Below, one piece after another: positions 1-9,901 of a stretch of DNA of 64,000 nt. Under the pieces are notes generated by a model. It saw only the letters and a list, made by a program, of their open reading frames with translations. It did no database searches and had not been told where the DNA came from. Each line of letters starts with the position of its first letter. Position 1 is the stretch's first letter. The stretch lies in the NCBI GenBank assembly GCA_024743315.1, contig JANSWU010000006.1, positions 186,001 to 250,000 on the forward strand. The letters run 5' to 3'. The translations under genes were made by a program, and so were the position numbers. This stretch comes from Hyphomonadaceae bacterium. GTDB lineage: Bacteria; Pseudomonadota; Alphaproteobacteria; Caulobacterales; Hyphomonadaceae.

Positions 1-105
1 GATGGAATTCGACACGAGATCGATACGCTCACCAAAGCGCAGATCGAACGCTCGCCATTGCCAGCGAAGTTCCTGGAAGTGTTTGTTGAGGCAGCGATCG
101 AGTAA
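1..105 (+). CDS. C-terminal end of an unidentified protein (cut by window edge)
   Basis: Frame 1 is open from the first base to a TAA at 103-105 and encodes the last 34 residues of a protein. The tail is charged and helical-looking, ending in AKFLEVFVEAAIE. No motif is recognisable and the start lies outside the window. The codons look ordinary for a coding region, but a chance open frame of this length cannot be excluded. It lies just upstream of a copy of the dispersed repeat, and the next gene faces it. Confidence 0.35.
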   Translation, partial: DGIRHEIDTLTKAQIERSPLPAKFLEVFVEAAIE

Positions 106-173
106 AGAATGCTGATTTTCGTGAAGTCCAGTACGCGTCCGCTCGCCCAGCTAAACTAATCAGCGGCTGCAAA

Positions 174-231
174 GGGGCGAGTTTAGGACGCTGAGATAAC
201 ACCTGCTCTCGGCGTAAAGCGGACATTGGAG
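174..231. repeat. Dispersed intergenic repeat, copy 1
   Basis: The 21-bp core GGGGCGAGTTTAGGACGCTGA is followed about 15 bases later by GGCGTAAAGCGGACATT. The same core recurs at 1533 and 10063. The second half resembles the short element often mistranslated as MSALGQ in alphaproteobacteria. All three copies lie between genes. Confidence 0.6.
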
Positions 232-243
232 CCTATCAAAACG

Positions 244-720
244 TCATTGTCTCGGTGCTAAACCAATGATCGGGCCGCCCGTATAGTGACAGTAACCCAT
301 GACCATGATGGTGTTTTCGCTCCACAGCGAATCGCAATTCGAAACCAGCCCGACGAGCTCAACCAACTTTCCTTGAGCCCGAGAAAGTTCGTCCATCCGA
401 CCTTGCTCAGCATAAACGGCTAGGCGGCGTTTGGCACTCTCTTCATTGTGAGATGGGTATTTGCGGCCAAGATCGCGTTCTCTCATGAACAACGCGCCTG
501 CGGTGTAAAACCCCTCAGTCCGAACGCATTTATCCCGATAATCGTCCGGCGCTTTCAAAAGCAGATCTAATGACACGGGTTCGGCCATGTTAGAGTTGCA
601 GGCCTCTTCAGTCGGGTACCATGAAAACAAGATCGACGTAGAGGGTTCATCGCCCTCGGCATTTGCCAATAAGGCGGACGCGATCACGAACAAACATGAA
701 AGGCAAATTGAGCGAAGCAT
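244..720 (-). CDS. Secreted hypothetical protein, 158 aa
   Basis: The protein begins with a clear Sec signal peptide: charged MLRS, a hydrophobic stretch, and a likely cleavage after LLANA near residue 21. The mature part is about 137 residues, contains several cysteines (for example in the segments EEACNSN, RDKCVRTEGF, NCDSLW and GYCHY), and ends in IGLAPRQ. The even spread of cysteines suggests disulfides in the periplasm. I do not recognise the family. The gene stands alone, facing the gene scrap at the window start across a repeat, and its start is the only good ATG before the hydrophobic stretch. Confidence 0.6.
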   Translation of the reverse strand: MLRSICLSCLFVIASALLANAEGDEPSTSILFSWYPTEEACNSNMAEPVSLDLLLKAPDDYRDKCVRTEGFYTAGALFMRERDLGRKYPSHNEESAKRRLAVYAEQGRMDELSRAQGKLVELVGLVSNCDSLWSENTIMVMGYCHYTGGPIIGLAPRQ

Positions 721-807
721 GCTCTTATACTAGCACCGCGCCCTGCGCGCGTCAGCTGTCGGCGTCAAAGCCGCCCCGACCGCGCGCCCATCAGGAGCCA
801 TCAATGT

Positions 808-1416
808 TTACTGTTTGGACCGAGCCTCAAAAACTGCAGGCCAATTCGTCGGGCCATTCTCAAATCGGTCATTTAGAGCTTTCAAAGACCAAGCGTTGCC
901 TTGCACAAAAAAGGCCTTCAGCTGTTCGGACTCTTCGTCATCGCCATACCCAATACCGCTTACAATCAAGCGCGTTCGATCGTCATTCGTGGGAAGAAAT
1001 TCAAACACGGAAACCAACTGTTCCCATGTGTCTTCACTGCCAAAACCAGCGGGCGCTTTGTCAGTCTTTTAGACGAGCAGGCGCTGCGGAATGTAGGCGA
1101 GTATTCGCAGCCTGATATTACCTTCACGGCCCAATTCGCCTTCAAGCTCATAACTGCTCTCGATGAATCCTTCGACGCCAAATTCGATGTGCGCGAACGG
1201 GCTCGCCCACGCGGTGTAGCCTTCGGATGTCGTGAAGGCATCCCAAACATCACTAGTACTCGCATTGATGATGACTTCCTGCTGTAGAAATTCGTGGTCA
1301 TCAATGGTTTCAACGATCCCGGAAGCTGGCAACGATACAGCTTCAGGCGTAGAAATCGATTGGCAACCGCAGACCAAACAAACCGCTAAAGCAACACCAG
1401 TGGTCAGTTTGAACAT
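808..1416 (-). pseudogene. SRPBCC (START-like) lipoprotein gene interrupted by an in-frame TAA
   Basis: The frame from the ATG at 1416 opens with a lipoprotein signal ending in LVCGC (lipid cysteine 18). It continues into an SRPBCC-type fold: VIINASTSDVWDAFTTSEGY and a following segment rich in beta strand. A TAA at 1071-1069 stops it after 115 residues. The same frame stays open with coding-like sequence (KTDKAPAGFGSEDTWEQLVSVFEF) to a second TAA at 810-808, for about 203 residues in all. Full-length SRPBCC proteins run 140-200 residues, so the single nonsense codon removes the second half, including the C-terminal helix expected around AWSLKALNDRF. A sequencing error or true stop-codon readthrough would look the same. 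Confidence 0.7.
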
Positions 1417-1484
1417 TGCTCATCCTCCCATCACCTCAGATTGAGTGTGTGTGCGATAGCTCGCCGCGTCAACTTTGACTGCGT

Positions 1485-1551
1485 GTCGATGCCCGCTCCT
1501 GACCCAAAGCCGACATCACCAGGGACCGTTTCGGGGCGAGTTTAGGACGCT
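1485..1551. repeat. Dispersed intergenic repeat, copy 2
   Basis: It contains GACCCAAAGCCGACAT at 1501-1516. Read on the minus strand this encodes the familiar spurious MSALGQ peptide found in many alphaproteobacterial genomes. It also contains the 19-bp core at 1533-1551 shared with copies 1 and 3. Here the two halves are in the opposite order to copies 1 and 3, so the family is modular. Confidence 0.6.
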
Positions 1552-1643
1552 TAATTGAAGCCCGTACTCGATAGCGCTCATCATAGTTTTTGAGTAATTG
1601 AACATTTGCTGTTGCGTGATCAACAAAACTAGTAGAAGAACAG

Positions 1644-1706
1644 TTATCGAACTTTCGCCGGACCATCAGGCTTCGGACGCGCGACCATCGGGTCCTGCTG
1701 ACGCAT
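1644..1706 (-). CDS. Possible 20-aa small ORF
   Basis: An ATG at 1706 is preceded by AGGAG with a 9-base spacer. It opens a 20-codon frame encoding MRQQDPMVARPKPDGPAKVR and ending in TAA. The peptide is basic and proline-rich. Apart from the ribosome binding site there is no support, and it overlaps a longer, clearly spurious frame. It may be a remnant of a decayed gene. Confidence 0.2.
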   Translation of the reverse strand: MRQQDPMVARPKPDGPAKVR

Positions 1707-1780
1707 CTTAGACAACTCCTGAAAAAGCATCGACGTCTCGCGCGCAATTCCGCGCGCGTCAATTTTTAATGGAGTTCTCT

Positions 1781-1990
1781 ATGACCCCAGGTACTGTAAA
1801 ATTCTTCAATCACCAAAAAGGCTTCGGCTTTATTCAGCCCGATGACGGGAGCTCCGATATGTTTGTGCATGTCAGCGCGCTTGAACGTTGCGGCATACAC
1901 TCTCTAAGCGAGGGGCAGAAAGTCACGTACACGACCGCGATTGACAAACGCAAAGGCAAAGAAGCCGTCGATATGATCGCAGAAGCCTAG
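1781..1990 (+). CDS. Cold-shock protein (CspA family)
   Basis: A 69-residue single CSD domain (OB fold) that binds single-stranded RNA or DNA and melts mRNA structure. RNP1 is visible as KGFGFIQ and RNP2 as MFVHVSAL, with the usual opening GTVKFFN. The typical length is 66-70, so the whole protein is present. An ATG 12 bases upstream is in frame, but GGAG at 1771-1774 fits the ATG at 1781 with six bases of spacing. The tail ([14 protein letters not shown]) is normal. It stands alone upstream of a conserved small gene; a GC-rich hairpin just before the start could act in temperature control, which is inference. Confidence 0.93.
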
Positions 1991-2263
1991 CGTCTGGATT
2001 GAGCCGCTCTTGCAAACTCAGCCAGGGCGGCTTGATCGAACCAATTGAGGTCAAGAATAACGTTCTCTCTCTTGGTTCCGCTCGCTTCTATTTAACCACC
2101 GCGATCGCTCCAAATTTGTTTCGTTGGGATTACCACGAACAGAGACTAGTGGGAGACGCGTAATCCAGGTTTCATTCGGGTTCTGATTGGTGCGCTTTAT
2201 CAAAGCCACCGCTTGCTCCTGCGGATTGGTCGGCCCCGTGAGTCCGACCTCAGGAGTGTGCTT

Positions 2264-2590
2264 ATGGTTCGTCGCACCAACAAAAAAGTGATCCAGTTCC
2301 AATTTCCCTTTGCGATCGATGAGATACGCAAAGTGTTCCCCCCAGGCGAATACACGATTGAAACAGAGGAAGAGTCTATCCCTGGATCATCAATCGTTCA
2401 TTTTCGACATGTGGAAACCGTCCTCGTAGTTCGCCCGCCCAAAGGCAAACCTGGGCCAACCCAGTTTTGGGCTGTGCCCCCAGACGCCTTGGACAAAGCG
2501 ATCGCCAAGGATGCGGATCAGTCCCTTGAGGCCAAACGCCGGGATCACGCAGTGGAAATGGCCAATAAAAACAAATCAAAGAGCGAGTAA
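2264..2590 (+). CDS. Conserved hypothetical protein, 108 aa
   Basis: The start is set by AGGAG seven bases before the ATG at 2264; an upstream in-frame start lacks one. The protein begins MVRRTNKKVIQFQFPF. It carries a segment (FPPGEYTIETEEESIPG) resembling small alphaproteobacterial proteins of unknown function with the pattern PPGxYxVETEEE. The C-terminus is charged and lysine-rich. There is no signal peptide or membrane segment. It lies four bases upstream of a secreted repeat protein, and the two are probably co-transcribed with the FKBP gene that follows. No activity can be assigned. Confidence 0.65.
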   Translation: MVRRTNKKVIQFQFPFAIDEIRKVFPPGEYTIETEEESIPGSSIVHFRHVETVLVVRPPKGKPGPTQFWAVPPDALDKAIAKDADQSLEAKRRDHAVEMANKNKSKSE

Positions 2591-2594
2591 GTCC

Positions 2595-3284
2595 ATGCGA
2601 TTTTTCATTACAACCTTGTCGTCATTGGGCGCGCTTCTTGCGATTGCTCTTACCCTCACGTTTGCAAGCATGAATGCCAGCGCCCAACCGGCGTCAGATG
2701 CAGCCATCCCGGAAAATGCGACCGCGCAGTTATATGGGAAAGGCTGGGGGTGCGATGCTGGTTATCGAGAGACAGATCAGTCCTGCGAAGAAATCGTTGC
2801 GCCTGAAAATGCATTCTTAAACGAGCGGAGCTATGGCTCTGGCTGGGATTGTTTGCGAGGATTTCAGCCATCTAACGGGCTATGCGAAGAAATCATCGTT
2901 CCCGCGAACGCCTTCTTGAAAGCCGACGGTCGCCGATGGGAATGCGAACGCGGTTTCAGGAGATCGAATGAAACCTGTCTGGCGATCGCCGTTCCAGAAA
3001 ATGGTTACTTATCTGGCAGCTCCTACGGTCAAGGTTGGGACTGCTTACGCGGGTATCGAAAAGTCGGTAGCAAGTGCGATGCAATCCCGGTCCCTGAACA
3101 CGGGTTCCTGACCAACGTGTCCTACGGTTCCGGTTGGGAATGTGTTCGCGGATTTGCGGCGCGAGGATCAGAATGTGTCGCGGTCAACGTACCAGAAAAT
3201 GCCCATTTGACGGATGCTGGTGATAGCTGGAACTGCAACCCTTCCTTTGAGCAACGCCTGAACGCTTGCGTCGCGGTCAACTGA
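2595..3284 (+). CDS. Secreted protein with six PENA-L/GxGWxC repeats
   Basis: A 229-residue protein. The N-terminus is a signal peptide with a hydrophobic run over residues 7-30 and probable cleavage after NASA. The rest is about six copies of a 30-32 residue unit: PENA-x-L, then Y-G-x-GW-x-C-x-RG-F/Y, then a cysteine and a short hydrophobic stretch before the next unit. Each unit has two cysteines, so one disulfide per unit is likely in the periplasm. Similar units occur in alphaproteobacterial secreted proteins, sometimes appended to enzymes, but here nothing else is attached. The start at 2595 lies just after the upstream stop, suggesting coupled translation. Function unknown; a binding or spacer role is a guess. 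Confidence 0.7.
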   Translation: MRFFITTLSSLGALLAIALTLTFASMNASAQPASDAAIPENATAQLYGKGWGCDAGYRETDQSCEEIVAPENAFLNERSYGSGWDCLRGFQPSNGLCEEIIVPANAFLKADGRRWECERGFRRSNETCLAIAVPENGYLSGSSYGQGWDCLRGYRKVGSKCDAIPVPEHGFLTNVSYGSGWECVRGFAARGSECVAVNVPENAHLTDAGDSWNCNPSFEQRLNACVAVN

Positions 3285-3319
3285 AGACGCCTCGCAAGCT
3301 ACAAAGCAAAGGAAATATT

Positions 3320-3760
3320 ATGCAAACTGCAAAACAGGGCGACACCGTGGTCATCCACTATGTCGTGCGAGCGACGGACGACCGCGTAATTGGTGCCGTC
3401 GATGCGGATGATCCGCAAACGCTCACATTGGGTATGTCGGAAATATTTCCAGCGATCGAAGCGGCATTGGAGGGCATGGAGGTTGGGACGACAAAGCAAG
3501 TCGCAATCCTGGCAGATCAAGCTTTCGGACCGCGGCGAGACGATCTTATCGTTCAGATACCACTTGCAAGTGTGGACCCCCGGGAAACGCCTAAGCCCGG
3601 CATGGCGCTTAATGCGCGTCAACCCGATGGAACCTCTGTCAAACTTATCATCATAGACATTACAGATGGAGTCATTCTGGCTGACGGAAATCACCCGCTT
3701 GCCGGGGAAGACTTGGAATTCGAGATCACACTGGCTGAAATCAAACCAACATCGTATTAG
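3320..3760 (+). CDS. FKBP-type peptidyl-prolyl cis-trans isomerase, SlyD-like
   Basis: A 146-residue protein matching the SlyD/FkpB pattern: GDTVVIHYVVRATDD at the start, an internal IF-domain-like insertion (residues 60-115), and the FKBP segment PAIEAALEGMEVG. It should catalyse proline isomerisation and act as a folding helper in the cytoplasm, since no signal peptide is present. It lacks the histidine-rich metal-binding tail of enterobacterial SlyD. The ATG at 3320 has AAGGA seven bases upstream; the longer frame starting at 3266 overlaps the previous gene and is less likely. It probably forms an operon with the two preceding genes. Confidence 0.82.
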   Translation: MQTAKQGDTVVIHYVVRATDDRVIGAVDADDPQTLTLGMSEIFPAIEAALEGMEVGTTKQVAILADQAFGPRRDDLIVQIPLASVDPRETPKPGMALNARQPDGTSVKLIIIDITDGVILADGNHPLAGEDLEFEITLAEIKPTSY

Positions 3761-4001
3761 GCCGCTCGCAACACCCGTGCTTTATGATGCCCACAGGCAT
3801 TTGGTGCGAACGACACCGGTGCGACCAAACGTGTTGAGCTCCAAATCCTGCATTGTGCTCAGTGTCTTTAGCAGTGTCCAAGGTTTCGTTCGGTTGTTAT
3901 CTGAGGCCGACATTGCGAGCGTCTGGTTTAGGGCGACTAAAGCCTCTGAGCTAACGACTGCTTTTGCTCGCTTAGCTGACAGCCATCCCATCACAAAAGA
4001 A

Positions 4002-4023
4002 GCCCGCTGAAAATTCAGCGGGC
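4002..4023 (-). terminator. Intrinsic terminator of the minus-strand secreted-protein gene
   Basis: A 9-bp perfect stem (GCCCGCTGA / TCAGCGGGC) with a four-base loop. On the minus strand it is followed by TTCTTTT. It sits 21 bases after the stop of the gene ending at 4045. The remaining bases between 3761 and 4001 contain no gene, only a degenerate TTTAGGGCGACTAAAG motif near 3928. Confidence 0.75.
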
Positions 4024-4044
4024 GACGCAAAAAGAGATAGAACT

Positions 4045-4452
4045 TTATGTGATATTGATCGTGAAAGATGGAGAACCGCTGCATTTTTTCTTCGCCGACA
4101 GTTTATTTTTTGGTTTCCACTTCCATTTCCCATTGCTCTTCAAGGTTTGATACTGAGCGCGAATTTTGATTTCGGTATTCTTCACCTTTTCAAGATTTCG
4201 GTTCCAGGTGTAGCTTTTGCCCTTCTCGATGACGCGATTGGAGATGTTCTCAGATCGCTTGCGATCGATTCGCATATCTATGTAATCCAAGTCGACAAGT
4301 CTGATGGATTTGTTTGTTTTATTGACGACTTTGATGCGGACATTTTTGCAGATGTCCCAATCTGCTTGTGCAGGCTGATTGGCCTGCGTCACAAATACTC
4401 CAGTAACGGCCAGCGCGCCGATCATTGCGGTTTTAAGTCCAAGATTGATCAT
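4045..4452 (-). CDS. Secreted basic hypothetical protein, 135 aa
   Basis: The N-terminus is a Sec signal peptide (MINLGLKTAMIGALAVTG, cleavage likely after QPAQA near residue 30). The mature part is strongly basic, about 105 residues, with segments such as VRIKVVNKTNKSIRLVDLDYID and KWKWKPKNKL, two cysteines, and a beta-rich look. The start at 4452 is preceded by GGGGAGTAGGAAAG; longer frames upstream have no ribosome binding site. It is divergent from the histidine kinase gene. The shared 146-bp promoter region carries one copy of the 18-bp palindrome, so it may be a target of that two-component system. Family unknown. Confidence 0.6.
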   Translation of the reverse strand: MINLGLKTAMIGALAVTGVFVTQANQPAQADWDICKNVRIKVVNKTNKSIRLVDLDYIDMRIDRKRSENISNRVIEKGKSYTWNRNLEKVKNTEIKIRAQYQTLKSNGKWKWKPKNKLSAKKKCSGSPSFTINIT

Positions 4453-4535
4453 CTTTCCTACTCCCCTTTGCTCGGAATGAGCGGTGTATCGACTATTCGA
4501 TGACCTCAATTTGCGTCGGAGAAGAGAGATGAGTA

Positions 4536-4553
4536 ATGGGTGCCAGTACCCAT
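4536..4553. promoter_or_regulatory. 18-bp near-palindrome, copy A
   Basis: ATGGGTGCCAGTACCCAT has perfect 6-bp outer arms, ATGGGT and ACCCAT. It lies between the divergent secreted-protein and histidine kinase genes, 45 bases before the kinase start. Closely related sequences at 9097 and 9236 lie upstream of the other two secreted-protein genes nearby. The repeated position suggests an operator. Confidence 0.55.
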
Positions 4554-4597
4554 TTGTAAAACCCATGAAAATGGTAGACCTGTACACATAGAATTCT

Positions 4598-6115
4598 GTG
4601 AGTCAGGTCAAAGCTGTGGTCCGAACCATCAAAATTTTTGCTTTAGGCGGCTTAATGTTTGCAGCGACCGCTGTGGCTCAACCCATCGCGCAATCGCCAG
4701 CTTATACGCCGTCAGCGATTGGATTTTACAGTTTCGCCGTCACCATTGTGCTGATCTTCCTGCTTCTGAACGTTGCTGTGAAGAACCAGCCGGGCCTTTA
4801 TATCTCAGCGCTTAATATTGGCATGTTGGCATCGATTTGGATGCTAGAGGATGGCTTGATCGGGCTGTTTCCGAGTATGGGGCGACCGCTGAACGATTCA
4901 TTCGTTCTAAGCACTGGTCAGCTCACATGCACGATTGGCTTCGTAACAGCAGCAAGAGTCTACCACCCAGATAATGTGACAAAGACCATCAAGACCGCGC
5001 TCTTGAGTTTGGCTCTTGTCTCAACCCTCAGCATTCCAGTCTTATGGCTCGTACAAGACTTCACGTTGTGGATGGGCGTTACAAACACTTCAGTTGTATT
5101 GATGCTTGCGGGTTTATTCGCTGCGACTCGCACATGGCGAACACATGATTCACGCAGGCGCATCGTGCCCGCGCTGACAGCCGTGGTGGCGCTTACGGCG
5201 ACGGTTGTCATTATCTTTCTTTATCTCGTCAGTGATGGACGCGCCTGGATTGAACAAGGCGCAATCCTGCGAGTATTTTTTGTCATTGTAGCCTTCCCGA
5301 CTATGTTGGGCGTCCTGTTCGAGCTCAACGATATGCGCAAGGATCGCGACAAAGCCCTGATAAACGCAGTCGAGGCCGCCAGAAAGGATGCCCGAACTAG
5401 TGCCGACTTACTGGAAATGGAAAAACAATACGCGCGCGCCCGCGCCATTGCAGATGCTCGCACGCGGCAGTTATCGACCGCATCACACGATATTCGCCAA
5501 CCCATCGCTTCTATGCGGGCAGAGTTAGATGCGCTTCGTTCGGATCAAACCAGCGCGCCCACGGTCGATCGATTGGATCGGGCACTCGATCATTTGAATG
5601 AGCTCACTTCCGACCTTTCGGAAGCCGGGAGCCGGTCGCTTGAAGCCGGATTACATGGCGAGGTCGAAGCGGAAACACTCGGCGTGAGTGTTTTGCTCGA
5701 AACGCTCGACAAATTGTTCGCCTCCGAAGCGCGAAACAAGGGTATCGAGTTCAAAACCGTTCAATCATCAGCGACAGTCAGCGTTCCGCCTCTCATTCTT
5801 ATTCGGATCGCAAGCAACTTGATCACAAATGCCATCCTGCACTCTGATGCGAATAAAGTCCTGCTCGGCGTTCGACAGCGCGAAGGCCACATTCGCTTGG
5901 ATGTGATCGATAATGGCAACGGGTTCGAAGATGGGTCAGCGGATTGGGCCTTTGCGCACGGCGAAAAAGGGACTCACTCAAGCGGAACCGGCCAAGGCCT
6001 GTCTATCGTCAAGGAATTGGCCGATAAATACGGCATTGACTTGCAGGTTTGGACTGAACCCGGGGTCGGCACACGGTTTTCGATATCCCTTCCGGCTGTC
6101 GCAGATCCCAACTAA
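4598..6115 (+). CDS. Membrane sensor histidine kinase
   Basis: A 505-residue kinase. Residues 1-240 hold about seven hydrophobic segments, so sensing is probably within the membrane or on a small ligand. A coiled-coil linker (245-290) leads to the H box SHDIRQPIASM with phospho-acceptor His297. The HATPase domain follows, with N box ASNLITNAILHS, G1 DVIDNGNGF and G2 GTGQGLSIVKE. The SHDxRQP H box is the form seen in kinases that often act with LuxR-type regulators. The GTG start at 4598 is the best available; no strong ribosome binding site is seen. The partner regulator follows 50 bases downstream. Signal unknown. Confidence 0.85.
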   Translation: MSQVKAVVRTIKIFALGGLMFAATAVAQPIAQSPAYTPSAIGFYSFAVTIVLIFLLLNVAVKNQPGLYISALNIGMLASIWMLEDGLIGLFPSMGRPLNDSFVLSTGQLTCTIGFVTAARVYHPDNVTKTIKTALLSLALVSTLSIPVLWLVQDFTLWMGVTNTSVVLMLAGLFAATRTWRTHDSRRRIVPALTAVVALTATVVIIFLYLVSDGRAWIEQGAILRVFFVIVAFPTMLGVLFELNDMRKDRDKALINAVEAARKDARTSADLLEMEKQYARARAIADARTRQLSTASHDIRQPIASMRAELDALRSDQTSAPTVDRLDRALDHLNELTSDLSEAGSRSLEAGLHGEVEAETLGVSVLLETLDKLFASEARNKGIEFKTVQSSATVSVPPLILIRIASNLITNAILHSDANKVLLGVRQREGHIRLDVIDNGNGFEDGSADWAFAHGEKGTHSSGTGQGLSIVKELADKYGIDLQVWTEPGVGTRFSISLPAVADPN

Positions 6116-6142
6116 AACTTCTGTTTCTATTTCGAGTGTGCC

Positions 6143-6169
6143 ACATGTTTTCTCAGGGAGAAAACATGT
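6143..6169 (+). promoter_or_regulatory. Perfect inverted repeat over the regulator's start codon and RBS
   Basis: The arms ACATGTTTTCTC (6143-6154) and GAGAAAACATGT (6158-6169) are exact reverse complements separated by AGG. The AGGGAG ribosome binding site spans loop and right arm, and the ATG of the response regulator is inside the right arm. As RNA it would hide both. As DNA it would be a dyad operator. Confidence 0.7.
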
Positions 6170-6822
6170 CGGTTTCAGATACTTACACGGCAGTTATTGC
6201 CGACGATCACGATATTGTCCGCGACGGTTTGCGGGCTGCGCTTGAGCAATCGGACCTGTTCGAATTGCTGACGCTGAACATTGTCGCGGAGACGTCAAAC
6301 GGGTTCGAAACCTTGGCAGCCGTCAAACAGCATCAACCCGACCTCTTGCTTCTCGATTTGACCATGCCTCTGTCTGGTGGCGCTGAAGTTTATACGGACG
6401 TGCGGCGCTGGAGCCCCAAGACAAAAATTGTCGTCTATTCATCTGTGACAGCTCCAGGGGTCCTGAGCATGCTTGTGAGCGCGGGCGTAGATGGGATGTT
6501 TGCGAAGGGTGGCTCCAACAAACTGCTCTATGAAAAACTGCCTCTTATCTTGCGCGGCGGTCGGTTCATCGCGCCAGAATGTATGGCACTGATGGAGGGT
6601 CAAGAGGATGTTGTAGCTCTAACGGCGCGAGAACATCAAACGCTGCATCTGGTCCTGTCGGGCAAAACCACCAAAGAGATTGCGGCAGCTCAAGGGATTA
6701 GTCCGCGCACCGTCGAAAAGCATAGAGCGAGCCTGATGCAGAAGCTTGATGTCTCATCAATCGCAGAGCTGATGGCGAAAGCTTTGAAGGACGGGCTGCT
6801 CGATTCTTCAAGCTCGATCTGA
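6166..6822 (+). CDS. Response regulator, NarL/LuxR type
   Basis: A 218-residue two-domain regulator. The receiver domain (about 7-130) has the acidic pair Asp13/Asp14 in IADDHDIVRDGL, phospho-acceptor Asp64 in LLLDLTMP, and the conserved lysine in FAKGGS (Lys114). The GerE/LuxR helix-turn-helix (150-210) has LTAREHQTLHLVLSGKTTKE and ISPRTVEKHRASLMQKL. It follows the kinase by 50 bases and is its likely partner. AGGGAG fits the ATG at 6166. A perfect hairpin covers this start, so translation may be controlled separately from the kinase. LuxR-type dimers bind palindromes of about 18-20 bp, so the local 18-bp motif is a reasonable target; that link is inference. Confidence 0.9.
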   Translation: MSVSDTYTAVIADDHDIVRDGLRAALEQSDLFELLTLNIVAETSNGFETLAAVKQHQPDLLLLDLTMPLSGGAEVYTDVRRWSPKTKIVVYSSVTAPGVLSMLVSAGVDGMFAKGGSNKLLYEKLPLILRGGRFIAPECMALMEGQEDVVALTAREHQTLHLVLSGKTTKEIAAAQGISPRTVEKHRASLMQKLDVSSIAELMAKALKDGLLDSSSSI

Positions 6823-6833
6823 GCACGGCGCGG

Positions 6834-9065
6834 TTACCGCATCTGCACGACATAACGGACATTTCCGGAAGCGCTTTGCCAGACCGCTGCCTTGGAGTTC
6901 GCGAATGAGAGCTGGGCGCCAGCGTCGTTGCGGTAAACGGCTTCGCTCACTTTATTGTAGACAACCGCTTTGCCCGAAGTTGAGCTTCGCATCAGGATGA
7001 AACCGTTCCCAGATTTTATGGTGTATGGAACGATGCCGCCATCGGTTTTCATTTCCCAATTTCCGTCGAAGGACCGGCTCCTATCCGCTTGCGCACGTGT
7101 CTCGGATTGATTGACTGAGACTTTCTCACGCGCCGTGTGCGTCGCATTCGAAGATATGGTTCCGTCATCATATGGCGCTTCGTCAGCGTCCTTATCGACA
7201 CCCGGCATGATGAGTTTCAAACCGCGATCACAGTTTCGATCCTCGTCCATGTATTTGAGCGTGCGAAAATTCTGACGGAAACAGATGCGTTCTTGTACAT
7301 CACCATTTGAAACGCGCTTATAGTCGCGCTTGTCCGACCATGTATCGCGTTCGAACTTTACGCCGCTTTGTGCGGATCCGTTCTTATAGAGATCGACGAT
7401 GATGTGCTCCTTAGTGCGCTCTGTGACTGTGATTGCCACACCATTCGACACGCGGGCATCGTCATCATCGACTTCGTACCAATTTCCGATCGCACACCCC
7501 ATTTCATAGTCACAGACCTGATTGGTTGTTGCGCGCACATATTCTGGCCCGATCCCCTCGCCAACAACACCGGTGACCGTCAGGGTCATGCCCGAATAAT
7601 CGAAGTCCCAATTGCCTTTGCCATCCATGTCGGTGTCTTTGCGGTTATACCAAAGCCCAATCGCAATCGCAGGTTTGACCGGCACTCCCTTAATTTTGGC
7701 GGTCGGGATCTTGATGTTGCTGTACTCGAGCGCGTTAGACAGCGTGATGAGATCCATGACATCGAAGGTCCAACCATGCACCTTTCCACGAAGCTGATTA
7801 ACCTCGCTCTGCCACATGCCAAGTGTCACGCCCGCTTCCGCATTGGCTTGGAGGCCATAAGAGATCGCGCCGCCCGAATACCATTTTGAGTCATTTCCCG
7901 CCCCCGGCGTCGATTGGCAGCGGAACCCTGCTCCAACCTCTCCAGAGACGCCGATGACGAGCTGTGCGCCGCCAACAAGCCCTACCGTGTAGGACTGATG
8001 GTTACGCCCAACGCAGCTGACGCCCGGTGGGGGTGGCGGGCTATCCTCATCGCTATCCTCCAAGGACCGTGCATAGGCCTCGTCTTCGCGGAGCGATACA
8101 GCGCTGTTAATTAGAGATTGTACTGTTTCGGCCCCCATAGCCTCGAAATCGGCTATGACTTGCGCTTTTAGAGCAGCCTTCTCGGTCATTTTGCATTGGC
8201 CTGAAACGGTCCATTGCAAGCCGTCCTGACAAGCCTTGCCTTTATCCGTCACCCGGCAAGCGCCGGTTTCGACCGTGCCGCAGGGTCTGCAATAGCCATC
8301 GCGCTTGGTCGTCCACTCTTCGCACTGGCGACCAACTTCGATTGCCGGACACGCACGCTGATCGAGTCTGCCGCATGGTTTGCAGTAACCATCAAACGTC
8401 CCCAGGCCACTCTCGCAAACCGTACCTGAAGCCAGGACAGGGCATGCTCGCTCATCTTCACCGCCGCAGGGGTGACATGTCCCGCTATAGTTTTGCAATT
8501 CGCCTTTGCACTGAGCGCCAGCTTTCAGTGCGCGGCAGGCTTTTTGACCTTCTCCGCCACAGCTCCGGCAAATATTGCTGCTATCTGGCTCATATTCACC
8601 TCGGCATGGGTAGCCAAATTCGAGCTTGGGACACGCCTTCTGGTTGGCACCCCCACAGGCATGACAAACGCCGTTCTTGGTCACGAGTCCATTGCCACAA
8701 CCTGACGGAATACGGCCGATCTCACAGGCTGGTTGCCCGTTCGCTTTGCCACATGGCTTGCAATACCCTCGCAGCGGCGCATAGCCTTTCCCGCAGCGAA
8801 ACCCGATGCGGGATGCGGGCCAGGCTTTCTTGTTCGGTTGCCCCCAATTCCTACAATACTTTTTGTACTTTTTCAGATTTCCGGAACACTGGGGCCCCGA
8901 CTTCCAGGCCGCACAGGCTTTTTCATCTTTGCCCCCACACCCGGCGGATGCCGTGCCGTTGCCAATCCAGAAAACAGCCAGACAAAGGAAAGAAATTTTA
9001 AGTAAGACGGCAATCTGAGTTGAAACTCTGAACATGGAATGGGTCCCCATAATGCAATAATTCAT
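6834..9065 (-). CDS. Large secreted protein with eight four-cysteine repeats
   Basis: A 743-residue protein with a signal peptide (hydrophobic run FLCLAVFWIGNG, cleavage near TASA). Residues about 43-290 contain eight units of roughly 30 residues following CGG-x-x-QKAC-P-x-x-x-x-G-x-x-C-x-G-x-L, ending in G-x-C. Unit 2 has Trp at both of the first two cysteine positions (NWGQPNKKAWPAS). A linker with a run of prolines and acidic residues (about 340-350) leads to a beta-rich, glycine-rich part (350-560) and a C-terminal domain ending in VRYVVQMR. The repeat resembles the GQRPC/ERIPSC units of other proteobacterial secreted proteins. It ends 11 bases past the regulator gene, on the opposite strand. 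ATGs at 9047 and 9035 are also possible starts. Function unknown. Confidence 0.72.
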   Translation of the reverse strand: MNYCIMGTHSMFRVSTQIAVLLKISFLCLAVFWIGNGTASAGCGGKDEKACAAWKSGPQCSGNLKKYKKYCRNWGQPNKKAWPASRIGFRCGKGYAPLRGYCKPCGKANGQPACEIGRIPSGCGNGLVTKNGVCHACGGANQKACPKLEFGYPCRGEYEPDSSNICRSCGGEGQKACRALKAGAQCKGELQNYSGTCHPCGGEDERACPVLASGTVCESGLGTFDGYCKPCGRLDQRACPAIEVGRQCEEWTTKRDGYCRPCGTVETGACRVTDKGKACQDGLQWTVSGQCKMTEKAALKAQVIADFEAMGAETVQSLINSAVSLREDEAYARSLEDSDEDSPPPPPGVSCVGRNHQSYTVGLVGGAQLVIGVSGEVGAGFRCQSTPGAGNDSKWYSGGAISYGLQANAEAGVTLGMWQSEVNQLRGKVHGWTFDVMDLITLSNALEYSNIKIPTAKIKGVPVKPAIAIGLWYNRKDTDMDGKGNWDFDYSGMTLTVTGVVGEGIGPEYVRATTNQVCDYEMGCAIGNWYEVDDDDARVSNGVAITVTERTKEHIIVDLYKNGSAQSGVKFERDTWSDKRDYKRVSNGDVQERICFRQNFRTLKYMDEDRNCDRGLKLIMPGVDKDADEAPYDDGTISSNATHTAREKVSVNQSETRAQADRSRSFDGNWEMKTDGGIVPYTIKSGNGFILMRSSTSGKAVVYNKVSEAVYRNDAGAQLSFANSKAAVWQSASGNVRYVVQMR

Positions 9066-9096
9066 GCTGATGATCGCAGATCCTCAAAGGCACGGT

Positions 9097-9114
9097 ATGG
9101 GGGCTGATACCCAT
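9097..9114. promoter_or_regulatory. 18-bp near-palindrome, copy B
   Basis: ATGGGGGCTGATACCCAT lies 31 bases upstream of the ATG of the cysteine-repeat protein. Reverse-complemented it reads ATGGGTATCAGCCCCCAT, which agrees with copy C at 14 of 18 positions or more. See copy A for the shared arrangement. Confidence 0.55.
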
Positions 9115-9235
9115 TTTTAATTTTGCAGGGGCAAGCCACATCGTTCTGTCTCTAAGTCGAGAAACCGGGTGGTAAAGCTCGCTTTGTACACGAAAGTCTC
9201 GGGTTTTATTGGCTCAACAGGGCTGAGCCTATCGA

Positions 9236-9253
9236 TTGGGTAGTAGCCCCCAT
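9236..9253. promoter_or_regulatory. 18-bp near-palindrome, copy C
   Basis: TTGGGTAGTAGCCCCCAT lies 63 bases upstream of the plus-strand secreted protein at 9317. With copy B it brackets the 250-bp divergent promoter region, each copy near one gene. Confidence 0.55.
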
Positions 9254-9316
9254 GTACCGGGGCTCGCCACGCCATAGTCTCACCTCAAACGATCATGCTT
9301 TGAGGGAGACATACAA

Positions 9317-9901
9317 ATGAGCGTTAAATCAGATTCGATTTCAAGACTTCTAACGGGCATTGCAGCCTTTAGCTTACTCGGCAGCGCTGGATGTGCCGGC
9401 ACCGAAGCACTTGCCGCAGGTCCGATGGGAGATGCGTTCGCGGCAGCCGCCGGCATTCCGCAAATGGATGCATTCTTACAATATGAAACTCAGGTGCCGC
9501 CCGGAGAAGCGCTTCCCATTGACGGGGATTATACCATCTCCACGCTGGGTAAGCGCATTCGGATAGATCGCGGGCGAGGTTATGCGTTGGACCCTTGGAC
9601 CCATGCAATGACGTTGAAGATCCGACCCAATATGGTGGTGTCCAAGGATTTTCGGCAAATCAGCGCAACTGAATATACCAGCCAGGACCTGCCGCTGCTG
9701 GGAACGGCGACAATGAAGGTCCAGCCCGATGGGCGCATCGCAGTAAATGTCGCGAGCATTCCTCCCTACAGTTATTTCCTTATACCGGTTGAGGGCAGCG
9801 TCTCGCCGGCACCTCAGCCGGACGAGCCACCAACCATCGATGAAGATTGTGAGAACCTAGATATCGATGCTGAAACTGGCGAACTCGTTTGCATTGACTA
9901 A
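9317..9901 (+). CDS. Exported hypothetical protein, possible lipoprotein, 194 aa
   Basis: The N-terminus has a hydrophobic signal (SRLLTGIAAFSLLGSAGC). Cys26 after LGSAG could be lipidated, though Ser at -3 is not the usual lipobox residue. The mature part has a beta-rich region (PIDGDYTISTLGKRIRIDRG, then a TMKVQPDGRIAVNV segment) and an acidic, proline-rich tail with two cysteines near the C-terminus. GGGAG lies nine bases before the ATG. It diverges from the cysteine-repeat protein, and both have a copy of the 18-bp palindrome nearby, which suggests co-regulation. I do not recognise the family. Confidence 0.65.
   Translation: MSVKSDSISRLLTGIAAFSLLGSAGCAGTEALAAGPMGDAFAAAAGIPQMDAFLQYETQVPPGEALPIDGDYTISTLGKRIRIDRGRGYALDPWTHAMTLKIRPNMVVSKDFRQISATEYTSQDLPLLGTATMKVQPDGRIAVNVASIPPYSYFLIPVEGSVSPAPQPDEPPTIDEDCENLDIDAETGELVCID

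What the first reader, a model, noticed from the sequence alone, without database searches (positions are those of the whole stretch)
4536..9253. 18-bp near-palindrome shared by three promoter regions around a two-component system
The sequence shows ATGGGTGCCAGTACCCAT at 4536, ATGGGGGCTGATACCCAT at 9097 and TTGGGTAGTAGCCCCCAT at 9236. Oriented alike they fit WTGGGTAnnnGCnCCCAT. One is in the divergent promoter region of a secreted protein and the histidine kinase; the other two lie upstream of a cysteine-repeat protein and an exported protein. LuxR-type regulators bind dyads of this size, so the regulator at 6166 may control all four transcription units. That makes a compact signalling module whose outputs are three uncharacterised exported proteins.
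Basis: partly seen in the sequence, partly recalled or inferred. Interest (0 to 1): 0.7.

Follow-up and report, generated by a model that had tools for sequence, protein, structure and literature searches.

The report
Conserved operator of an exported-protein regulon
A short mirror-image DNA motif, repeated in front of a sensor/regulator gene pair and neighbouring exported-protein genes, is conserved in related bacteria and is very probably the docking site through which that regulator switches on these uncharacterised proteins.

Summary
The three dyads are the only exact matches to the consensus in the 3.31-Mb genome. Relatives were chosen by protein similarity, never by motif. All eight other family genomes found with the small exported protein P4 have exact dyads before P4, cysteine-repeat, regulator or kinase genes. 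In those nine genomes 24 of 28 exact sites lie in the module. In 12 of 12 asymmetric distinct sites assigned to the nearest gene, the intact half lies away from the gene. A -10-like box recurs 21-22 bp downstream in most promoter groups, not all. Relatives of the regulator have a dyad nearby in 15 of 17 loci, some with a GGGG core. Best reading: the NarL/FixJ-type regulator binds the dyad and activates its own operon and the exported proteins. Binding, signal and output functions are not shown. P5 was found in no other of 29 genus genomes, and G017 has dyads without a detected regulator. A known kind of circuit with unstudied outputs.

The parts
4045..4452 (-). P5: 135-aa protein with a Sec-like signal peptide (by eye), no Pfam family; possible fourth target
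   Evidence: ORF; no Pfam match; found in 1 of 29 genus genomes (its own)
4536..4553 (-). Dyad site 1 between P5 and the kinase gene; its intact half lies distal to P5 (ATGGGTACTGGCACCCAT on minus)
4575..4580 (+). -10-like TAGACC, offset 21 from site 1, for the kinase-regulator operon (weak score, inferred)
4598..6115 (+). Sensor histidine kinase: about six or seven N-terminal hydrophobic segments, HisKA, HATPase_c
   Evidence: 45% identical relative in G010
6166..6822 (+). Response regulator, receiver plus LuxR/GerE DNA-binding domain (NarL/FixJ type)
6834..9035 (-). Exported cysteine-repeat protein (733 aa; 31 Cys in the first 300 residues, then a region without Pfam match)
9070..9075 (-). 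-10-like GATCAT, offset 21 from site 2 (inferred)
9097..9114 (-). Dyad site 2, 61 bp before the cysteine-repeat gene
9236..9253 (+). Dyad site 3, 63 bp before P4
9275..9280 (+). -10-like TAGTCT, offset 21 from site 3 (inferred)
9317..9901 (+). P4: 194-aa protein with an N-terminal export signal (by eye), no Pfam or NCBIfam family; conserved partner of the module

Best explanation
The 18-bp dyad WTGGGTA-N4-TACCCAW is the operator of the adjacent NarL/FixJ-type response regulator (6166-6822). The membrane kinase (4598-6115) phosphorylates the regulator on an unknown signal. The regulator dimer then binds the dyad, which ends about 21 bp upstream of a -10-like box (dyad centre near -42), and recruits RNA polymerase as a class II activator. 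Targets are its own kinase-regulator operon (feedback), the cysteine-repeat protein, P4, and possibly P5. Shown here: the dyads, their conservation, spacing and orientation, and co-occurrence with the regulator. Inferred: binding, phosphorylation, activation rather than repression, and start sites.
For: Only 3 exact genome copies, all here. Exact dyads in the loci of 8 of 8 other family genomes that have P4; five of these (G017, G022, G024, G063, G082) were first found through P4, three (G010, G019, G023) through the kinase or regulator, none through the motif. In the 9 P4 genomes 24 of 28 exact places are in the module. Regulator family with a dyad nearby in 15 of 17 loci: 9 of 9 close relatives, 4 of 4 full-length family paralogues with a GGGG-type dyad, 1 of 2 from other families of the class, 1 of 1 gammaproteobacterial, 0 of 1 truncated. 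No dyad in 4 of 4 loci with cysteine-family or P4 homologues but no regulator nearby. Intact half distal in 12 of 12 asymmetric distinct sites assigned to the nearest gene; 4 symmetric; 8 sites set aside as divergent (binomial p 0.0005). -10-like score best at offset 21 for 17 P4 and cysteine sites pooled (permutation p 5e-5) and at 22 for the separate-kinase (6) and 'other' (5) groups.
Against: G017 has both output genes with dyads but no regulator match at E<=1e-40; its draft is 93% complete in 280 contigs. G197 has a relative of the regulator and no dyad. For two of the four paralogue loci one dyad is weak evidence alone (18 and 17 of 200 random sequences had as many). The cysteine group alone peaks at offset 34 with 21 second, and the first-TCS-gene group (7) at 27 and 29. 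Of the 8 divergent sites set aside, one (G082) has the intact half on the cysteine-gene side. The 95 genomes without module still have 31 exact places against 14 for the reversed pattern. The genomes are related, so counts and p values are not independent. No binding or expression data.
Confidence: 0.82

Rival explanations
1. The dyad is bound by the adjacent regulator, but as a repressor (or dual regulator) that blocks polymerase at the -35 region until the kinase signal changes its state.
For: A dyad ending about 21 bp upstream of the -10-like box would overlap the -35 region, where repressors also bind (position).
Against: A recurring offset and the one-sided degeneration of the promoter-proximal half fit contact with polymerase better than simple blocking (inference); many NarL/FixJ regulators activate when phosphorylated (general knowledge).
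Confidence: 0.12
2. A different, unlinked transcription factor binds the dyads, and the two-component genes are only one of its targets.
For: G017 carries dyads without a detected regulator; in G010, G019 and G022 single sites lie in intergenic stretches far from the module.
Against: Dyads co-occur with this regulator family across families and classes, and the core changes (GGGT to GGGG) between regulator subclades.
Confidence: 0.05
3. Chance similarity or a dispersed repeat element.
Against: Conserved location and orientation at orthologous promoters; no other exact copy of the consensus in the genome.
Confidence: 0.01

Closest known systems
DosR/DevR operator (NarL/FixJ family, Mycobacterium)
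   Same: Palindrome with GGG and CCC cores eight bases apart (TTSGGGACTWWAGTCCCSAA; two passages of PMC2275270) bound by a LuxR-family response regulator; DevR is among the solved relatives of our regulator profile.
   Different: Half-site TGGGTA instead of GGGACT, free centre, unrelated and few, local targets; DosR controls about 50 genes (start of abstract).
NarL heptamer arrangement (TACYNMT, 7-2-7; recalled, no call)
   Same: TACCCAT fits the heptamer consensus as recalled.
   Different: The heptamers face the other way and are 4 bases apart (ATGGGTA-N4-TACCCAT).
ComA and GacA dyads (recalled, no call)
   Same: Two hexamers around a short spacer, similar overall size.
   Different: Different half-site sequence and regulator subfamily.
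7TMR-DISM histidine kinases
   Same: The kinases of G023 and G084 have 7TMR-DISMED2 and 7TMR-DISM_7TM matches.
   Different: The window's kinase matched no sensor domain in Pfam.

Membership tests
NarL/FixJ-type (LuxR-class) response regulator | Receiver domain with conserved phosphoacceptor Asp plus C-terminal GerE helix-turn-helix | tested here: met
   Pfam Response_reg 1.3e-16 and GerE 2.3e-16; D13, D14, D64, K114 invariant in 9 sequences
NarL/FixJ-type (LuxR-class) response regulator | Binds a dyad as a dimer | not testable with these tools
   Only conservation and co-occurrence of the dyad
Orthodox two-component system | Adjacent HisKA plus HATPase_c kinase | tested here: met
   HisKA 9.2e-09, HATPase_c 8.6e-18
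Named response-regulator equivalogs in NCBIfam (PRK15369, MctR, GacA family, NarL, ErdR, FixJ and others) | Score above the curated cut-off | tested here: not met
   All 25 listed of 61 matches are below cut-off, e.g. 111 of 242 and 103 of 300 bits
DosR/DevR operator | TTSGGGACTWWAGTCCCSAA | tested here: not met
   Only the GGG-N8-CCC spacing is shared; the half-site differs
Class II activator promoter | Site adjoining or overlapping -35, centre near -41.5 | tested here: inconclusive
   -10-like box best at offset 21-22 for P4, P4 plus cysteine, separate-kinase and 'other' groups; not for the cysteine group alone (34, then 21) or the first-TCS-gene group (27, 29); no mapped start sites
MACPF pore-forming proteins | MACPF domain in the window's outputs | tested here: not met
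   No Pfam match in the three window outputs; MACPF only in the gene next to P4 in L011

The most novel reading that the evidence does not exclude
The regulon is an inducible surface or secreted effector module with interchangeable parts. A regulator-operator pair and the small partner P4 are kept, while the kinase type and the large exported protein are swapped (cysteine repeats with different C-terminal parts; elsewhere P4 stands beside a MACPF protein or a caspase-like protein, and a dyad sits before an RTX protein gene). It would serve antagonism, predator defence or attachment in Hyphomonas-like bacteria.
Probability: 0.15. Interest if true: 0.72.

Novelty: new member of a known kind. Interest (0 to 1): 0.45.

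Why it matters
It turns a cluster of orphan genes into one testable circuit with a defined operator, and gives a first handle (co-regulation with a kinase) on two protein families that matched nothing in Pfam or NCBIfam. Because the operator core seems to vary with the regulator subclade, the set is also a natural data set for how NarL/FixJ regulators read DNA. As a circuit it is ordinary: a two-component system that regulates itself and its neighbours.

Tried and rejected
Structure of the outputs: AlphaFold2 models from alignments of 3-4 sequences were poor (P4 mean pLDDT 44; cysteine-protein C-terminal region 40, with only its last 80 or so residues at about 80-86). Foldseek against PDB gave no match at E<=0.001 (weak lipocalin/PliC-like hits for the small barrel, not relied on). 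Sequence profiles against PDB chains found nothing for the cysteine protein and one E=0.68 hit for P4.

Sites outside the module: all 4 of the outlying places in P4 genomes and 11 of the 34 places in the other 96 genomes were fetched; the rest were not looked at. G084's pair flanks its regulator (L115). L116 (lipoprotein gene, fully palindromic site) and L124 (RTX gene) were kept as possible further targets. L117, L120-L123, L125, L126 and L128 have the site inside an ORF; L118 lies before dnaX and L119 in a short gap between ORFs; L127 gave no matrix hit. These were taken as background without further test.

P4 matches G105 and G593 were weak and gave no P4 hit or dyad in the map; they are left out of the counts. 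Class and phylum samples (385 and 398 genomes) were drawn evenly from larger groups, so absence elsewhere is not shown.

Literature: terms for a TGGGTA-type dyad with response regulators, and written-out forms of the consensus, returned 0 papers and one DegU paper (listing only). Hyphomonas/Henriciella and MACPF searches listed 15 of 88, 11 of 11 and 8 of 24 papers; I saw titles and abstract starts only, none on this system. PMC2275270 was seen as a listing with abstract start and two passages.

Full report
What was claimed and what is there. In the window's own genome (3,312,933 bases, 8 contigs) the consensus has three perfect matches, all in this locus, and six one-mismatch matches elsewhere (one at window 453), against two for the reversed control pattern. 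Since the consensus was drawn from these sites, the decisive test is conservation.

Conservation. Relatives were chosen by protein, never by motif. A P4 profile (four rows, from the window and from loci first found through the kinase or the regulator) found P4 in 9 of 105 family genomes, own included. The eight others (G010, G017, G019, G022, G023, G024, G063, G082) all have exact dyads in the locus; five of them (G017, G022, G024, G063, G082) were new through P4. The sites lie before P4, the cysteine-repeat gene, the regulator and, where the kinase follows the regulator, the kinase. In G082 P4's own site has one mismatch. Dyad-to-start distances were measured for 13 P4 and cysteine genes: 11 are 61-63 bp (9 of 11 in relatives), the others 68 (L107) and 91 bp (L091) (P4 of L091 and the genes of L110 and L111 were not measured). 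The kinase relative at E<=1e-40 was found in 2 of 105 genomes, own included. Kinases examined in G023 and G084 have 7TMR-DISM sensor domains that the window's kinase lacks. So the sensor differs between genomes while regulator, operator and outputs are kept.

Genome-wide specificity. WTGGGTAN6CCCAW was counted in 105 family genomes. In the nine P4 genomes it occurs at 28 distinct places, 24 of them in the module; reversed control 4. The other 96 genomes have 34 places in 24 genomes. Three of these are in G084, which has no P4 match but a close regulator with a dyad on either side and a third site before an RTX-type gene. The remaining 95 genomes have 31 places against 14 for the reversed control, so the general level is about twice the control. 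Several of these are the same site inside similar ORFs of related genomes. Outside the module the nine P4 genomes have 4 places, a similar rate (0.44 against 0.33 per genome).

Anatomy of the site. A matrix of 24 module sites (19 distinct) gives WTGGGTA-N4-TACCCAW. The outer letters and GGG/CCC are invariant by construction, because sites were taken with the exact pattern WTGGGKN7CCCAW; the informative columns are the TA positions, where a G can replace the T or the A. For 16 distinct sites assigned to the nearest gene, the intact TGGGTA half lies away from the gene in 12, towards it in 0, and 4 are symmetric. These include the window's sites 2 and 3 and two of G017, which lie between divergent genes and were assigned by nearness. 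Eight further sites were set aside as divergent, of which one (G082) points the other way relative to the gene first named. A -10-like hexamer scores best at offset 21 for P4 (9 sites) and for P4 plus cysteine (17; permutation p 5e-5, the smallest value the test could give), and at 22 for separate-kinase (6) and 'other' (5) sites. The cysteine group alone (8) is best at 34 with 21 second, and the first-TCS-gene group (7) at 27 and 29. The hexamer table was typed from recall and the promoters are related. Taken at face value the dyad is centred near -42, the place of a class II activator (inference).

Link to the regulator. A regulator profile found 14 matches in 13 of 105 family genomes at E<=1e-40 and 2 further genomes among 385 of the class at E<=1e-45; the gammaproteobacterial locus L011 came. 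Of these 17 loci 15 have a WTGGG-N8-CCCAW dyad: all 9 close relatives; 4 of 4 full-length paralogues (G063 contig 5, G066, G011, G087), mostly with a GGGG core; G252; and L011. G197 has none. G049, whose regulator lacks the front part of its receiver domain, has none. In random sequence the mean per paralogue locus is 0.065-0.105; as many dyads arose in 18, 2, 1 and 17 of 200 trials for the four loci, so two of them are weak singly. Three loci with cysteine-family homologues and no such regulator nearby (G088, G092, G098) and the P4 locus of G384 have no dyad. The contrary case is G017: both outputs and both dyads, but no regulator found in a 93%-complete draft.

Outputs. The cysteine protein has 31 cysteines in its first 300 residues; the number of repeats varies between relatives, the G082 protein matches only in the repeats, and the G063 protein matches only in the C-terminal region and has no repeats. 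P4 has no Pfam or NCBIfam match. In L011 the next gene after P4 has a MACPF domain; in G384 the gene before P4 has caspase and FGE-sulfatase domains. P5 was found in 1 of 29 genus genomes, its own. What these proteins do is unknown; the models were too poor to help.

Comparison. The regulator is a NarL/FixJ-type response regulator by domain content but below the cut-off of all 25 NCBIfam models listed of 61. The operator shares the GGG-N8-CCC spacing of the DosR box (PMC2275270, passages) but not its half-site. Written-out forms of the consensus returned no paper in the held library, and the other searches listed nothing on this system. The taxon is inferred: equal contig lengths indicate that G019 and G023 are the Henriciella and Hyphomonas records L013 and L012, and both are labelled as the window's genus.

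Verdict. It is a new member of a known kind of circuit whose outputs are unstudied families.

Noticed in passing
window 9278-9310: The P4 leader can form a hairpin over the ribosome-binding site, also predicted on an alignment of the window with five relatives; 10 pairs, one with both sides changed, so weak covariation.
   Followed up: partly
L011:5003-7919: In a gammaproteobacterial MAG, P4 lies just upstream of a MACPF-domain gene, with a GGGG-type dyad before P4.
   Followed up: partly
L112:7119-10035: P4 homologue next to a protein with caspase and FGE-sulfatase domains in another alphaproteobacterial family; no dyad.
   Followed up: partly
L111:6399-8315: LCCL-domain protein near P4 in G082, with one small ORF between them.
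   Followed up: no
L155:9556-10180 and L154:9176-9813: Beside two regulator paralogues a gene whose product begins MYGK lies behind a GGGG-type dyad; the L155 product looks like a lipoprotein.
   Followed up: partly
L120:4957, L121:4882, L122:4164, L123:4240: A dyad-like site recurs inside an ORF of similar size and neighbourhood in four genomes without the module; probably coding conservation, orthology not tested.
   Followed up: no
L110:12882-14907: The kinase similarity in G063 continues in a second reading frame, so the gene may be frameshifted or the draft may hold an error.
   Followed up: no
window 2511-3284: Another protein with repeated GWxCxxGF-like units lies upstream of the module beside an FKBP-type isomerase gene; no matrix hit in window 1-4535.
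   Followed up: no
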